Shown here piece by piece: positions 12,206 through 18,072 of a stretch of 43,530 bases of DNA; the first letter of the stretch is position 1, and every line of letters starts with the position of its first letter. Both the position numbers and the translations under genes were made by a program. The DNA comes from Candidatus Peribacteria bacterium (GTDB lineage: Bacteria; Patescibacteriota; Gracilibacteria; UBA1369; UBA12463): positions 1 through 43,530 of the forward strand of contig CALRDN010000010.1 of NCBI GenBank assembly GCA_943354965.1. The letters are read 5' to 3'. Under the pieces are notes generated by a model that saw nothing but the letters and a program-made list of their open reading frames with translations, had not been told where the DNA came from and made no database searches.

Positions 12206-13888
12206 TTAAAAAGGCCTCTTGGTCTTCGGAAAGTTCATCCACACATTAATTCCGCACCATCTTGGTCCCTCTGGGCATGGACCTTCCGTGGTAGCGAGAT
12301 CCAAACTTTTATGTGTATTCGCGCTATCTCCCATGATCGACTTCATTCTATCGCTACTCACATGTCCAACTCCACCCTGATATCGCGTGAAACATGGCGG
12401 CCCAAGATACTTACCCAATAGAGGATGCACCTCTTTGACCTGCATTAACTCATCAACCGAGCAGTTATAAATTTCCAACTGGGCCAAGAAGCAACTTCGT
12501 AGTCTCCACTTATGCATGAAATACAGTAAGGAGCCACTTTGTGTGTATCGAAGCATCACGGCATTCGGGAGGATGTAGCAGGCAAACTCCGACGGCACAC
12601 CCATTTCTATAAGTTTATTTTTCGCGCTCCACATCTCATTCATCACATCCGTATACACCTTCAGAGCCTCTTCATTTTTTTCAAATACAGGCGGCGTCAT
12701 GTAATCTGGTTTCAGCGTATGCGTTAATCTCAATAATGGCTTCGACCCCGGAGTCATGCGATGTCTCTGCTCCTGACTATCTCCCGTATGGGTCATTCTT
12801 TTTTTAAAAGTGTACTGCGCATGGTTCAATGTCCTCATAAGAGGGGACATGTTCCACGAATTCAACGCATCGTTCATATACGTATTTTTCGCCGGATTCA
12901 CCACCCAATCAATCGCCTCATCATCTCCAATTACGCTTGCACCCACACCCATTACCTCACGCACGCTATCCGCAACAATATGCTCAGCTCTCGGATCAAA
13001 CATCACTAATTTCGACCATCTGTCTCCCAATTCTGCATCAAAACTCTCACGGAATTGTTCATTCGCCTCATACATCTTCTCCTGCGTTAAGCCACGTCCA
13101 ACCAATTCTGTATACAATTTTTGCTCAACTAAATCATTCTCAAGAAAAGCCTCATCACCAATGCGTTCAATGAAATCCGGATCAATGTTCCGTACCTCCT
13201 CAACCATCATATCTACAATCAATTTAGCCTCAGTGGGGCAGTCGCTCGTCGCAGCCATGCGCACATATCGCTTCAGCACAATGCCGGAAATCGTATGATA
13301 CATCGTCGTATGCGCGCCCAATGGCAACACATATCGAGCATTTTCAATCGCCTTCTTCTCACTATCGGTCATGATCTGCTTCTCGCTCTGACCCTTCAGC
13401 TTGCCGATCTTTTCCATCAGTCCATAATTATCTCCAATCAATAATTGTGAAATCTTATTGTACGCCTCCCAACTTTTCACCACCGCGCCCTCATATATTT
13501 TCAAAGCCTCGCCCTCGAGAGGTGGCACATATACCGCCGCATCATCCATTACTACGTACCGCTGTGACTGCTGCTCGGAATTATAAAAAGGATGAGCATG
13601 GAAGAAACTCCACACCACATGACGAGAAATATTTTGAAGACCAAAAACGAAGGTCGGATGCTGAAAAGGCGTGTGATGTCCCGCCTCATAGATACTCTTT
13701 CCGATACGATCTCTCTGTCCTGGAGTGATATCTTTTACGTAAACTAAATCAGACGAGTAGCACGTCCTCGCCGTTGCCATAGCGATATCGAAGGGGTGGC
13801 CGGTGTACGCCAACAACTCAATCTTCGCCACAGGGCTAACCACAGCAACATTCTTTCCCGAAAACTTCTCATTAGTATTCTTTTCCAT
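12206..13888 (-). CDS. Tandem ThyX-like (FAD-dependent thymidylate synthase) protein
   Basis: ThyX methylates dUMP to dTMP using methylene-tetrahydrofolate and FADH2, usually as a 220-260-residue protein forming tetramers. This protein has 560 residues and two ThyX-like halves. The first has SRHVVWSFF (R89, H90) and EQQSQRYV (105-112), close to the RHRxxSxNxxSxRY signature, then LPLGAHTTMY at about 188-197. The second has FKKRMTHTGDSQEQRHR (361-377) and LPNAVMLRYTQSGSL around 440-454. Both signatures deviate from consensus, so one half may be structural. The C-terminal tail holds C499, C538 and C545, a possible metal site. No thyA is in the window. dut, tmk and folD at 38-41 kb serve the same pathway. 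Confidence 0.78.
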   Translation of the reverse strand: MEKNTNEKFSGKNVAVVSPVAKIELLAYTGHPFDIAMATARTCYSSDLVYVKDITPGQRDRIGKSIYEAGHHTPFQHPTFVFGLQNISRHVVWSFFHAHPFYNSEQQSQRYVVMDDAAVYVPPLEGEALKIYEGAVVKSWEAYNKISQLLIGDNYGLMEKIGKLKGQSEKQIMTDSEKKAIENARYVLPLGAHTTMYHTISGIVLKRYVRMAATSDCPTEAKLIVDMMVEEVRNIDPDFIERIGDEAFLENDLVEQKLYTELVGRGLTQEKMYEANEQFRESFDAELGDRWSKLVMFDPRAEHIVADSVREVMGVGASVIGDDEAIDWVVNPAKNTYMNDALNSWNMSPLMRTLNHAQYTFKKRMTHTGDSQEQRHRMTPGSKPLLRLTHTLKPDYMTPPVFEKNEEALKVYTDVMNEMWSAKNKLIEMGVPSEFACYILPNAVMLRYTQSGSLLYFMHKWRLRSCFLAQLEIYNCSVDELMQVKEVHPLLGKYLGPPCFTRYQGGVGHVSSDRMKSIMGDSANTHKSLDLATTEGPCPEGPRWCGINVWMNFPKTKRPF

Positions 13889-13926: not shown

Positions 13927-13937
13927 GGAGAGATGTG

Positions 13938-14993
13938 CTAAACCTGTGGGGTCCAAAATTGCTTATTACTGTGTCTGGTTTGCATATAATTGCACAAGGA
14001 ATGAAATACGGCATCATAGCTTTTTTGCATGACGTTCGGACCTTTGAGAAAACGAATGGCCGAGTCGTAAGCTTCTTGTTTTCCATGATATACGAGTTGA
14101 ACTCCGGCGGCCTGAGCGGCGAGAATTTGTATGACGCACGTCACATTTTCGCTATTACCAAAAACTCCGGCGCCCCAGGCGCCTGTTCGAACCATTTTTC
14201 CACCTTTATCGACATGAGCTCTAAAGGATTTATATGCCGTTTCAAACATCTGTTTGTAATTTTGAATTTTATAATGTCCCCATCGATTCCTCTTCATATC
14301 TATAGCTGCCATTGCCATAATTTGGACTTTTTTTGGCGGCTGTACTTTTTGTAGAAATTGATCCACATTGCTCCTGGAAACAGGAGAGGTATCGATAGTT
14401 AATCCAGGACTCCCAAACTGTCCATGGCCGTAGATTTGTTTTCCTTGACCGACAAATCTATGAGTTTGCAGTCCAGTCATGTATAGGGGGTCTATATTGA
14501 GTCCTGAATATTCACCAGCTTCAGACAGTAAATTAGTTTCTATCAGCAATTTTTCCTCCTGTGCAAAACCACGTGGGCCGACAGCACCTCCGCCAAATGA
14601 GTCATTCGCGAAGTCAACAATAGCGGTGTCGCCCGTTGCGTCATCTGACGAAAAAAAACCTCGCTGGTATTGTGAACGGACACGAGGGTTCCATCGCTGT
14701 GTCTGAGTGTAGTCAAAGTTGCAATTTCCAGCTAATTGTTCAATTAAATACTCGTTGCCACTGATGAGTAATTGGTCGTTAAGATTTGTAATGAGAAGGG
14801 CCTTCTTTTGTTCACACATCTGGTGATTATTTTCGATTGCCGCTTTTAAATTTTGAATCCTGTTGGGATCTATTTTTTGCTTACTATTTTTTCCTGACAG
14901 GAGAGCGCGAATTTTACCAGAAAAATAACCTCCAAAACTACCCGTGGAAGGCTTAGGCTGTTGTAGCGGGCTATCGTCTGGATTTTCTCTCAT
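13938..14993 (-). CDS. Poly(ADP-ribose) glycohydrolase (PARG)-like macrodomain protein
   Basis: From the ATG at 14993 the protein has 351 residues. PARG removes poly(ADP-ribose) chains by cleaving ribose-ribose bonds. The signature GGG-X6-8-QEE is met exactly: VDFANDSFGGG (GGG at 134-136), eight residues, then QEE at 145-147 with the presumed catalytic glutamates E146 and E147. A second block, TGAWGAGVFGN (270-280) followed by VIQILAAQAAGVQLVYHG, matches the PARG segment that reads TGNWGCGAFGG with IQ.lAA. The first 90 residues are helical and basic and may be an accessory domain. The ATGs at 15050 and 15041 would add a poor N-terminus. No ADP-ribosyltransferase is visible in the window. Family call is from motifs, not a search. 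Confidence 0.82.
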   Translation of the reverse strand: MRENPDDSPLQQPKPSTGSFGGYFSGKIRALLSGKNSKQKIDPNRIQNLKAAIENNHQMCEQKKALLITNLNDQLLISGNEYLIEQLAGNCNFDYTQTQRWNPRVRSQYQRGFFSSDDATGDTAIVDFANDSFGGGAVGPRGFAQEEKLLIETNLLSEAGEYSGLNIDPLYMTGLQTHRFVGQGKQIYGHGQFGSPGLTIDTSPVSRSNVDQFLQKVQPPKKVQIMAMAAIDMKRNRWGHYKIQNYKQMFETAYKSFRAHVDKGGKMVRTGAWGAGVFGNSENVTCVIQILAAQAAGVQLVYHGKQEAYDSAIRFLKGPNVMQKSYDAVFHSLCNYMQTRHSNKQFWTPQV

Positions 14994-15096
14994 AAAGGAA
15001 TTATACCATAAATATGCGTCAATTTCAATCCAAACCTTCATGTTGCCCATTCCTCATTAAATGCTAATATACTTCCGACAAAATCGCACATCACAA

Positions 15097-15172
15097 GGGC
15101 CCGTAGCTCAGTGGTTAGAGCAGTCCGCTCATAACGGATTGGTCCCTGGTTCAAGTCCAGGCGGGCCCACCA
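15097..15172 (+). tRNA. tRNA-Ile2 (anticodon CAU, lysidine type)
   Basis: A 76-nt cloverleaf with GGGCCCG/CGGGCCC acceptor stem, D arm GCTC/GAGC, anticodon stem GTCCG/CGGAT with loop CTCATAA, T arm CCTGG/CCAGG and encoded CCA. The anticodon is CAT. The body (GTGGTTAGAGCAG, TTGGTC, TTCAAGT) closely follows bacterial ileX, in which TilS converts C34 to lysidine so that AUA is read. An elongator tRNA-Met is the alternative. The initiator is excluded by the paired first base. Confidence 0.9.
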
Positions 15173-15180
15173 TTTAGAAA

Positions 15181-15204
15181 CTCTCCTGCGCGGAGGGTTT
15201 TTTT
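15181..15204 (+). terminator. Intrinsic terminator after tRNA-Ile2
   Basis: CTCTCC pairs with GGAGGG (one G-T pair) across the loop TGCGC, followed by seven Ts. It lies 8 bp after the CCA end. Confidence 0.75.
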
Positions 15205-15213
15205 GAATTTATC

Positions 15214-15242
15214 TTGACGGTGAGTAAATACTCACCTATATT
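15214..15242 (+). promoter_or_regulatory. dinD promoter with palindromic operator in the spacer
   Basis: TTGACG (15214-15219), 17-bp spacer, TATATT (15237-15242). The spacer is filled by the perfect inverted repeat GGTGAGTA-AA-TACTCACC (15219-15236). A dimeric repressor here would occlude both promoter boxes. In other bacteria dinD is under LexA; whether this is the local SOS box is inference. The ATG at 15274 is 31 bp beyond the -10 box. Confidence 0.75.
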
Positions 15243-15273
15243 GAAGCTAAAATAATCCTTAACCCTTAAATCT

Positions 15274-16101
15274 ATGAAAAAGGAAATTATTATTCGCTTA
15301 CATAAACGGTTTGAAGACTTCGTTCACATGGAGAATGGGATGGAGTATTGGTTGGCGAGGGAGCTACAGGGGCTTTTGGGATATACGCAGTGGAAGAATT
15401 TTGAGATGGTAGTGGAAAAAGCAGTGTTAACTTGTGAAAATGCTGGACAGAAGCCAACGGATCATTTTTCCGACGTCAGCAACATGATCGAAGTGGCTAA
15501 GAATGCACATCGAGATATTCTTGATATCAAGCTCACCCGCTACGCATGCTACCTTATAGCCCAAAACGGCGATCCGAGAAAAGAGGAAATCGCATTCGCC
15601 ATGAATTATTTTGCGATGCAGACGAGGAGGCAGGAGCTTATTGAGGAGCGAATTAGTCAGTGGGAGCGATTGCAGGCACGGGAGAAGTTGACCGCATCAG
15701 AAAAAGAACTTTCGCATTTGATATATGAACGTGGTATTGATGAGCGTGGTTTTGGACGAATACGAAGTAATGGAGATGAGGCATTTTTCGGAGGAGTGAC
15801 GACGCAAGGCATGAAAGACAGATTAGCCGTTCCGTCAAATCGACCTCTTGCTGATTTTCTTCCAACGATAAGTATAAAAGCAAAAGACTTCGCTACGGAA
15901 GTAACAAACGCGCAAATTCAGCAGCAGAATTTAAATGCCGAGAATCGGATATCCCGTGAGCATATTAAGAATAATAGGGATGTTCGCAAAATTCTTACCG
16001 ATCGTAATATTATTCCCGAGACACTTCCAGGCGGAGAAGATATGAAGAAAGTACAGAGAAGGCTAAAAGCAGGGCATGAAGGGATTATAAAGCTTAATTA
16101 G
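15274..16101 (+). CDS. dinD: DNA damage-inducible protein D (DinD) homologue
   Basis: A 275-residue protein close to the E. coli DinD length (274). It begins with a BRO-N-type region (EYWLARELQGLLGYTQWKNF at about 24-43), followed by the DinD segments FSDVSNMIEVAKNA, LTRYACYLIAQNGDP and AMNYFAMQTRRQE. The C-terminal half has RGFGRIRSNGDEAFFGG, LADFLPTISIKAKDFATE and a helical basic end. In E. coli, DinD is SOS induced and inhibits RecA-mediated strand exchange by disassembling RecA filaments. That role here is inferred from homology. The palindromic promoter supports tight control. It sits between a tRNA gene and a Fic gene, a place typical for acquired genes. Confidence 0.9.
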   Translation: MKKEIIIRLHKRFEDFVHMENGMEYWLARELQGLLGYTQWKNFEMVVEKAVLTCENAGQKPTDHFSDVSNMIEVAKNAHRDILDIKLTRYACYLIAQNGDPRKEEIAFAMNYFAMQTRRQELIEERISQWERLQAREKLTASEKELSHLIYERGIDERGFGRIRSNGDEAFFGGVTTQGMKDRLAVPSNRPLADFLPTISIKAKDFATEVTNAQIQQQNLNAENRISREHIKNNRDVRKILTDRNIIPETLPGGEDMKKVQRRLKAGHEGIIKLN

Positions 16102-16149
16102 GTTTAAAACCGTGAATATACACTAAATCAGTACTATATTAACGTATTA

Positions 16150-16178
16150 TTGACAATATACCGTTAATTTGATACAAT
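16150..16178 (+). promoter_or_regulatory. Promoter of the Fic gene
   Basis: TTGACA (16150-16155), exactly 17 bp, TACAAT (16173-16178). The -10 box ends 23 bp before the ATG at 16202. A TTG at 16169 lies within this promoter and is not a plausible start. Imperfect inverted repeats AACGTAT/ATACCGTT flank the -35 box. Confidence 0.8.
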
Positions 16179-16201
16179 ATAGGCATATAATAACGAAAAA
16201 T

Positions 16202-17074
16202 ATGGCTACATCATTACTGACCCAGCGCAAAATTCAGGAACTCAAAAAGGAATACAATAAGCTCAAGAAAGGCAAAGAGTCGCTTATTCGTATGATCGAT
16301 GAGGTGGAGATGCCGGAGAGTATTTATAATTCAAATGCGATTGAAAATTCAACATTAACGCTTCAGGACACAGAAAAAATTCTGCTGGAAATGGAAGTTT
16401 CGAAAAATCTTCCTTTGCGTGAAGTATATGAGGCAAAAAATCTGGCACGCGTCATGGAATACATGGAGAAAAAATGCACATCTTCGCTTCTGACCATTGA
16501 TCTCATGAAGCTTTTACATCAAATGCTTATCGGTGGAATTGATGATGATATTGCAGGGAGGTTTAGGGCAAAGGGTGAGTATGTACGTGTAGGAACTCAC
16601 ATCGCCCCGGCCCCGGAACATATAGAATCACAAATTGCGGAGGCATTGGGCGTGTATAACGGTAATATGATTTTGTTTTTAATTGATCGCATAGCCAGAT
16701 TTCATCTCGATTTTGAAACGACACACCCGTTTAACGATGGGAATGGGCGAATGGGAAGAGTGCTCATGAATTGGCAATTGTGTCAGGCTGGTTTTCCGCT
16801 TATTACAATAAGAAACAAGGAGAAGAAATATTACTACCAAGCATTTCAGGTCTATGATAGGACAAAAAGCACAAAAGAGATGGGGAAGGTTATTACGCTG
16901 GCCCTGATAGAATCATTTCATAAGCGTATAGCCTACCTCAAGGGGCAAAAGATTGTGACGCTCGCGGAATATGCCCAGAAAAGCAAGATCTCACTCCAAG
17001 CGACTCTTAATGCCGCCCGACGTCAAACCATACCGGCCTTTCGAGAAAGGGCAGTATGGAAGATTGGAGTATAG
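16202..17074 (+). CDS. Fic-domain protein (probable AMP transferase) with inhibitory motif
   Basis: From the ATG at 16202 the protein has 290 residues. The Fic core motif HPFNDGNGRMGR is intact at 175-186 with catalytic H175, the Gly-Asn-Gly phosphate anion hole and both arginines. Fic enzymes transfer AMP from ATP to hydroxyl side chains of target proteins. The N-terminal helix contains SNAIEN at 44-49, which fits the inhibitory pattern (S/T)xxxE(G/N), so E48 would clamp ATP until released: a class II, self-inhibited Fic protein. The residues after 240 resemble a short winged-helix-like tail (LAEYAQKSKISLQATLNAARRQ). Target unknown. The gene ends convergently, 28 bp from the next gene. Confidence 0.92.
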   Translation: MATSLLTQRKIQELKKEYNKLKKGKESLIRMIDEVEMPESIYNSNAIENSTLTLQDTEKILLEMEVSKNLPLREVYEAKNLARVMEYMEKKCTSSLLTIDLMKLLHQMLIGGIDDDIAGRFRAKGEYVRVGTHIAPAPEHIESQIAEALGVYNGNMILFLIDRIARFHLDFETTHPFNDGNGRMGRVLMNWQLCQAGFPLITIRNKEKKYYYQAFQVYDRTKSTKEMGKVITLALIESFHKRIAYLKGQKIVTLAEYAQKSKISLQATLNAARRQTIPAFRERAVWKIGV

Positions 17075-17102: not shown

Positions 17103-17999
17103 TTATTTCTCGCGAATCGTTTCGGCAATTGCCTCGGCAATGATTTGCCCGAGTACGCCAACTTTTTTAGGATCAATCTCAGGATTCAAGAGGTCTGTTT
17201 CGCCATGCGCGTCGGTTTGCGTAACAAGTATTTTTGGAACATCCAAAGCAACGCCACGCGTTTGGTTGACGATCTCGGTGGACATGAGGACTGGCGCAAG
17301 TGGGTAAGGATTGTTAACATCAGAAGCAAAGCCGCCATCAGAAAAAGACTTTTGTAGATTGTGGATGAGAGTCGGGTCACCAATAGGTGGTGATCCCGGA
17401 ATCGAAGTTAAAATATCGATAGGTCGTATAGCACCGCGAAAGCGTAGATCGGTGAATGCTCGAATATAGGCATCCATATTATCCGGATTGAGAATGACCG
17501 CTTCGGTAGTGGAGCTGGCATTAACGGCTGGTGTATATGGAGCCATCGTGTGCATATCGAGGGCGATAACTTGGGAAAGGTTGGGGATGCGAGCCAGACA
17601 CTCGCGGACTTGTCCAATCATTTCCAGGTGTTCAGCCTCGAGTGCCAAGCGTAGACCTGGATACAGATCATAATCAATAATGGGACGTATGGCATGTCCA
17701 GGGAGACGATTGGGGTCAACAACACCACGATGCATATGATGATAAAAAAGTACCCGCGTGGAAATCTGATGGTCTCGCTCAAGATACTGACCAACCGTAT
17801 GGGCAAGGTTTTGACTACCCACATCGCATTCAAGGCGCAAAAATTTTTTCAGCAGCTCCGTGCGGCCGGAAAAAGCCTGAAAGATTTGAGGAAAATTTGT
17901 AAAAAAATCACCTCCATTGCTTGCATGGGGCAAGGTGATGAGACACTGTGGATTCTGGGAATCATGTGGATAATTGATCTCAATAACGGATGAATTCAT
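17103..17999 (-). CDS. N-formylglutamate amidohydrolase-like protein
   Basis: A 298-residue protein from the ATG at 17999. Motifs in order fit the FGase family of zinc amidohydrolases: LPHASNGG near the N-terminus (usually PHxG), CDVGSQNLAHTVGQYL, HRGVVDPNR (family DxNR) and ALDMHTMAPY with a metal-type His. The classic enzyme hydrolyses N-formylglutamate in histidine breakdown, but no hut genes are present and the family is used broadly. The substrate should be regarded as unknown. An ATG at 18026 would add nine residues and is less likely. Confidence 0.62.
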   Translation of the reverse strand: MNSSVIEINYPHDSQNPQCLITLPHASNGGDFFTNFPQIFQAFSGRTELLKKFLRLECDVGSQNLAHTVGQYLERDHQISTRVLFYHHMHRGVVDPNRLPGHAIRPIIDYDLYPGLRLALEAEHLEMIGQVRECLARIPNLSQVIALDMHTMAPYTPAVNASSTTEAVILNPDNMDAYIRAFTDLRFRGAIRPIDILTSIPGSPPIGDPTLIHNLQKSFSDGGFASDVNNPYPLAPVLMSTEIVNQTRGVALDVPKILVTQTDAHGETDLLNPEIDPKKVGVLGQIIAEAIAETIREK

Positions 18000-18072
18000 A
18001 GATATATGATGAAGTATAAGAGGCAAATATAGCGAATATAAGCCATGGAATCAATATGATTTGAAAATAGAA

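What the first reader, a model, noticed from the sequence alone, without database searches (positions are those of the whole stretch)
13938..14993. A PARG-like poly(ADP-ribose) glycohydrolase in a small-genome bacterium
Both diagnostic blocks are present: GGG-X8-QEE and TGAWGAGVFGN followed by IQILAAQAAG. The second block reads partly like eukaryotic PARG (IQ.lAA..aG) and partly like bacterial PARG (GVFGN), so it may be an intermediate or new subgroup. Poly(ADP-ribose) turnover in CPR bacteria is, to my knowledge, little described. It lies in an accessory-looking stretch with DinD and Fic and no visible ADP-ribosyltransferase.
Basis: partly seen in the sequence, partly recalled or inferred. 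Interest (0 to 1): 0.78.

Follow-up and report, generated by a model that had tools for sequence, protein, structure and literature searches.

The report
Orphan PARG-type hydrolase in a Peribacterium
This tiny-genome bacterium carries a lone, apparently intact gene for an enzyme related to the one that strips poly(ADP-ribose) chains in our own cells, picked up as a single-gene insertion and, lacking any recognisable partner that makes such chains, more likely to undo attacks by ADP-ribosylating toxins than to turn over its own polymer.

Summary
In detail: an intact 351-aa ORF (13938-14993, minus strand) carries GGG-X8-QEE and TGAWGAGVFGN...IQILAAQAAG. It matches Pfam PARG_cat_C well above cut-off (E 5.6e-14), not microbial-type PARG. 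An AlphaFold model (pLDDT 79) matches canonical PARGs best (Tetrahymena, E 5e-11). The host belongs to the same genus as a named 'Candidatus Peribacteria' MAG. The gene is very rare: 2 of 353 genomes of its class, both in this genus. In the two species it sits at different, otherwise syntenic places, each empty in the other, and is only 52% identical where neighbouring proteins are mostly 87-94%; two separate gains fit best. No PARP, ART, DarT or other macrodomain protein was found in the genome. Wider relatives are a diverse, apparently little-described set in Chlamydiota, Treponema and Verrucomicrobiota, many with QDE instead of QEE. 'Poly(ADP-ribose) turnover' is therefore not supported. 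The best reading is an orphan ADP-ribosyl hydrolase, probably protecting RNA or protein from ADP-ribosylating toxins, as shown for other bacterial PARGs. DinD and Fic lie across a tRNA and are not part of it. New member of a known kind; moderate interest.

The parts
13938..14993 (-). PARG-family (PARG_cat_C) macrodomain hydrolase gene, 351 aa
   Evidence: ORF; PF05028 E 5.6e-14; Foldseek best hits canonical PARGs, E 5e-11
14553..14594 (-). PARG signature GGG-X8-QEE (residues 134-147; E146 and E147 predicted catalytic)
   Evidence: sequence and shuffles; alignment with human PARG E755/E756
14103..14186 (-). Second block TGAWGAGVFGNSENVTCVIQILAAQAAG (residues 270-297; F278 aligns with human F875)
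   Evidence: F278 invariant in 30 of 30 aligned relatives
15000..15028 (-). Putative promoter TTGAAA-N17-TATAAT, 6 nt before the ATG (leaderless mRNA inferred)
   Evidence: same -10 to ATG spacing in the relative
13927..15042 (.). Approximate insertion carrying only the PARG gene and its promoter; absent between ThyX and tRNA-Met in G001, G002 and G003. Ends approximate; no target duplication or terminal inverted repeats recognised
15097..15172 (+). tRNA-Met(CAT), conserved flank of the insertion
12206..13888 (-). ThyX-type (Thy1) protein, 560 aa, conserved flank on the other side; not part of the function proposed

Best explanation
The gene encodes an active macrodomain ADP-ribosyl hydrolase of the PARG_cat_C family. 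It should bind a terminal ADP-ribose and use Glu147 as acid and Glu146 to activate water, with Phe278 holding the diphosphate, to cut 1''-2' O-glycosidic ADP-ribose bonds (enzyme class about 85% likely; the mechanism is transferred from solved PARGs). The cell has no recognisable PARP, ART, DarT or other macrodomain protein, so the substrate is most likely ADP-ribose placed on its RNA, or on protein, by toxins of competing microbes, hosts or mobile elements. The gene would act as an orphan immunity gene that spreads singly by horizontal transfer and inserts at variable intergenic sites. Shown: family, intact motifs, rarity, two different empty sites, absence of the ADP-ribosyltransferase families searched. 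Inferred: activity, substrate, protective role.
For: Pfam PF05028 above cut-off; human and mouse PARG are the top PDB sequence hits; AlphaFold model pLDDT 79.4, pTM 0.83, best PDB folds all canonical PARGs, ahead of bacterial-type (5e-11 against 2e-7). QEE, GGG and GVFG kept in both genus members, and substitutions between them are weighted to third codon positions (0.63 against 0.38 and 0.27), so it is selected as a protein. Sporadic: 2 of 353 in the class, 1 of 380 in a phylum sample. Clean single-gene insertion between ThyX and tRNA-Met; in G003 the relative sits between an anti-sigma-like gene and an ABC transporter gene, where G000 has none. PARG 52% identical against 87-94% for most flanking orthologues compared. 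No PARP, DarT, ART or Macro. Precedent: Streptomyces and Deinococcus PARGs, and human PARG, remove 2'-OH RNA ADP-ribose, and the two bacterial ones protect E. coli from RhsP2; that paper reports frequent horizontal transfer of bacterial PARGs (PMC11833690). Many bacteria have PARG without PARP (PMC4245714).
Against: No activity data. The enzymes shown to protect were bacterial-type; of the canonical type only human PARG was tested, in vitro. The canonical helical domain is not detected by sequence, and the tyrosine-clasp and Phe902 equivalents are not evident. The relative in G003 lacks 26 residues after the last motif helix and may be impaired. No toxin or attacker is identified. Divergent transferases outside the families searched could exist.
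Confidence: 0.45

Rival explanations
1. Host-directed enzyme: the bacterium lives on or in a eukaryotic microbe and the hydrolase acts on host poly- or mono-ADP-ribose.
For: Fold and sequence are nearest to the eukaryote-type branch; many relatives belong to Chlamydiota (27 of 234 genomes), a phylum of intracellular bacteria (own knowledge).
Against: No signal peptide or secretion signal is apparent in the 351 aa (inspection only); Peribacteria are not shown to have eukaryotic hosts; the tree does not place it inside the eukaryote-type group.
Confidence: 0.18
2. Internal housekeeping or repair: it removes ADP-ribose or PAR made by an unrecognised transferase, for instance at RNA or DNA ends after damage, as proposed for D. 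radiodurans PARG.
For: D. radiodurans has PARG and PAR but no PARP homologue (PMC6445106); its PARG lies in a damage-induced operon (PMC11833690).
Against: Absent from three of five genus members held and nearly all of the class; no repair gene is linked in both species.
Confidence: 0.17
3. Salvage: hydrolysis of environmental PAR or ADP-ribosylated material for ADP-ribose.
For: PMC4245714 suggests recycling of PAR from the environment; CPR genomes lack many biosynthetic routes (own knowledge).
Against: No export signal or uptake gene seen; not conserved in relatives with presumably the same lifestyle.
Confidence: 0.08
4. Cargo of a phage or mobile element, used against ADP-ribosylation-based host defence.
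For: Single-gene insertion at variable sites.
Against: No hit in phage records (tblastn), none confirmed in four scans of viral contigs, none in PHROGs; no integrase or phage gene beside it.
Confidence: 0.07
5. Drifted or binding-only macrodomain without hydrolase activity.
For: N869 of human PARG aligns with Ala272; the relative in G003 has lost 26 residues near the C-terminus.
Against: Both glutamates, GGG and F278 are intact; third-position-weighted substitutions.
Confidence: 0.05

Closest known systems
Canonical PARG (human, mouse, Tetrahymena; PF05028 PARG_cat_C with PF20811 PARG_cat_N)
   Same: Macrodomain with GGG-X6-8-QEE, Gx[VA]FG with Phe, IQ.LAA helix; best sequence and fold match
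   Different: No detectable PF20811 helical domain; clasp tyrosine and Phe902 equivalents not evident; low identity (18% or less in the fold alignments); separate lineage
Bacterial-type PARG (T. curvata, D. radiodurans DRB0099, S. coelicolor SCO0909; PF10021 / TIGR02452)
   Same: Same signature and fold, compact size, found without PARP
   Different: PF10021 not matched, TIGR02452 below its cut-off; weaker fold match (TM 0.38-0.41)
Chlamydiota, Treponema and Verrucomicrobiota PARG_cat_C proteins found here (L010-L060)
   Same: Compact PARG_cat_C proteins, shared YG[NR] and AMAAP-like segments, no PF20811 in those scanned
   Different: Many have FGY/QDE in place of GGG/QEE; separate well-supported clades
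Larg1 and MavL (Legionella PARG-like macrodomain effectors)
   Same: PARG-like macrodomains that act, or are thought to act, on mono-ADP-ribose
   Different: Larg1 lacks the GGG-X6-8-QEE motif (PMC10989772); no secretion evidence here; not compared directly

Membership tests
PARG_cat_C (PF05028) | Profile score above the curated cut-off | tested here: met
   52.7 bits against 26.3, E 5.6e-14
PARG_cat_C (PF05028) | GGG-X6-8-QEE with two consecutive glutamates | tested here: met
   residues 134-147; also in G003
PARG_cat_C (PF05028) | Conserved Phe of the GVFG motif | tested here: met
   F278, invariant in 30 of 30 aligned
PARG_cat_C (PF05028) | Macrodomain fold of PARG kind | tested here: met
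   model pLDDT 79.4, pTM 0.83; Foldseek 4epp E 5e-11, TM 0.61
Canonical (eukaryote-type) PARG | N-terminal helical accessory domain PF20811 | tested here: inconclusive
   no PF20811 match up to E 10; about 85 ordered N-terminal residues in the model, fold alignment of 373 columns to 4epp. L012 passes PF20811 as a positive control
Canonical (eukaryote-type) PARG | Tyrosine clasp (human Tyr795) and Phe902 | tested here: inconclusive
   no clear equivalents in the alignment; the conserved Tyr188 aligns nearer human Tyr789
Canonical (eukaryote-type) PARG | Groups with human PARG in a tree | tested here: inconclusive
   not grouped in the best tree, but not rejected (AU p 0.33)
Bacterial-type PARG (PF10021, TIGR02452) | Profile score above cut-off | tested here: not met
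   no PF10021 match to E 10; TIGR02452 18.7 bits, cut-off 50
Complete PAR metabolism (PARP plus PARG) | A PARP or ART gene in the genome | tested here: not met
   only a 13.6-bit antisense match for PF00644; none for DarT or ART. Genome about 100% complete by its record
PARG activity | Hydrolysis of PAR or of 2'-O-linked ADP-ribose | not testable with these tools
   needs purified protein

The most novel reading that the evidence does not exclude
Bacteria of host-dependent or crowded lifestyles (Chlamydiota, rumen Treponema, Verrucomicrobiota, Peribacteria) hold an undescribed radiation of compact PARG_cat_C hydrolases without the helical domain, including a catalytic variant (QDE), that serve as transferable immunity to ADP-ribosylating toxins and among which the eukaryotic PARG may have its roots.
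Probability: 0.2. Interest if true: 0.62.

Novelty: new member of a known kind. Interest (0 to 1): 0.38.

Why it matters
PARG without PARP is a standing puzzle in bacteria. A streamlined CPR genome that has nonetheless gained one, apparently twice within a genus at different sites, and that lacks every other ADP-ribose family searched, is a clean setting in which to test the orphan-immunity idea. The wider PARG_cat_C set, with QEE and QDE versions, would also help to show how canonical PARG arose.

Tried and rejected
Phage or plasmid origin: tblastn on phages, four viral-contig scans and PHROGs gave nothing; plasmids gave only Treponema pTS2 at E 0.04. PARP hit at G000:C3 (13.6 bits): antisense to a 744-aa gene, chance. 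Operon or module with DinD and Fic: not conserved (G002 has DinD without Fic; G001 and G003 have Fic without DinD; none of these has PARG there). First structure model (12 rows, pLDDT 57) discarded for one with 30 rows. Target-site duplication or terminal repeats: none recognised. A literature search for PARG in Patescibacteria or Chlamydiae found nothing pertinent in the held library.

Full report
Observation. The ORF at 13938-14993 (-) is intact, 351 aa. It holds GGG-AVGPRGFA-QEE at residues 134-147 and TGAWGAGVFGN at 270-280, followed by IQILAAQAAG. Neither motif occurs in any other frame of the window, and shuffled versions of the protein give them 20 and 3 times in 200,000. A near-consensus promoter (TTGAAA-N17-TATAAT) ends 6 nt before the ATG at 14993. 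The relative in G003 has the same spacing to its ATG with a weaker -10.

Family. Pfam gives PARG_cat_C at E 5.6e-14, above its cut-off, and no PF10021 or PF20811. NCBIfam gives TIGR02452 only below its cut-off. The best PDB sequences are mammalian PARGs. With a 12-row profile the score rises to 1e-26 for human PARG, against about 1e-3 for the D. radiodurans enzyme. An AlphaFold model from 30 rows (pLDDT 79.4, pTM 0.83) finds 42 canonical PARG chains before the first bacterial-type one (Tetrahymena 5e-11, TM 0.61; T. curvata 2e-7, TM 0.39). In solved PARGs the first glutamate activates water, the second protonates the leaving 2'-OH, and the Phe of GVFG holds the diphosphate (PMC4030884). These correspond to E146, E147 and F278. 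The tyrosine clasp and Phe902 have no evident counterpart.

Relatives. The nearest is in G003, the same genus, 52% identical. The same contig, CALREA010000014.1, is titled Candidatus Peribacteria bacterium isolate MaH-04nov19-110. Its protein lacks 26 residues after the final motif helix, in frame. In the class 2 of 353 genomes have the gene. More distant relatives (about 16-29% identity) occur in Rhabdochlamydiaceae, Treponema and other Spirochaetaceae, Verrucomicrobiaceae, a myxobacterial MAG and an 'Acidobacteria' MAG. 27 of 234 genomes in the phylum of the Rhabdochlamydiaceae MAG have matches, a few of which are microbial-type. Many of these relatives keep GGG...QEE; a large clade has FGY or FGF and QDE. 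In the tree the two Peribacteria proteins form one lineage (99/99) on a long stem at an unresolved fork. Human PARG groups with myxobacterial and verrucomicrobial proteins (100/100). Grouping with the eukaryote-type set is not rejected (p 0.33), nor with a chlamydial set (p 0.38); the join to bacterial-type has only 70/88. So 'canonical-like, own lineage, deep place unsettled' is as far as the data go.

Genome context. In three congeners ThyX and tRNA-Met are separated by short spacers without PARG (G001 about 80 bp, G003 about 210 bp). In the window about 1.1 kb holding only PARG and its promoter lies there. In G003 PARG lies between an anti-sigma-like gene and an ABC transporter gene. G000 has those neighbours (67% and 87% identical) with a small unrelated ORF and no PARG between them. 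Flanking orthologues of G000 and G003 are mostly 87-94% identical (orf154 81%, the ORF beside the sigma gene 75%, anti-sigma-like 67%), PARG 52%. Two separate gains are the simplest account; a move with fast divergence is not excluded. DinD and Fic lie beyond the tRNA on the other strand and come and go independently.

Other ADP-ribose genes. In G000 and G003 no PARP (one chance antisense match), DarT, ART or Macro family protein was found. Families outside those four were not searched.

Function. The enzyme class is well supported; activity is inferred. Without a polymerase, turnover of the cell's own PAR is unlikely. PARGs of S. coelicolor and D. radiodurans, and human PARG, remove 2'-OH-linked ADP-ribose from RNA, whose linkage is the one found in PAR. 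The two bacterial enzymes protect E. coli from RhsP2 (PMC11833690). A rare, singly transferred PARG fits that role best. Host-directed action, internal repair, salvage and phage cargo are the rivals, each weaker.

Verdict. A real, intact PARG_cat_C gene in a Peribacterium, new for that group as far as the held literature shows, and a new member of a known kind.

Noticed in passing
L013 (G697) C376:16438-21687 and C197: A Verrucomicrobiaceae MAG carries at least five PARG-family genes, three of them within 5.3 kb with QDE signatures and two of eukaryote-type with QEE.
   Followed up: partly
L010, L011, L013-L019, L034-L036: A clade of PARG_cat_C proteins in Chlamydiota, Treponema and Verrucomicrobiota has lost GGG (FGY/FGF) and has QDE in place of QEE, which may mean altered chemistry.
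   Followed up: partly
L005:5598-6665: The G003 PARG lacks 26 residues (the VQLVYHG strand and following helix) by an in-frame deletion although the frame stays open.
   Followed up: partly
window 15097-17074: The region beside tRNA-Met varies between congeners: DinD and Fic here, Fic only in G001 and G003, DinD only in G002; G001 has other genes between tRNA and Fic.
   Followed up: partly
window 12206-13888; L073: A 560-aa Thy1-family protein with two matched stretches; in G001 it is broken into two frames.
   Followed up: no
window 17103-18026: A 307-aa ORF with no Pfam, NCBIfam or PADLOC match; it reads a little like an N-formylglutamate amidohydrolase.
   Followed up: no
L043: A chlamydial PARG_cat_C domain at the C-terminal end of an open frame of over 800 aa, so fusions exist.
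   Followed up: no
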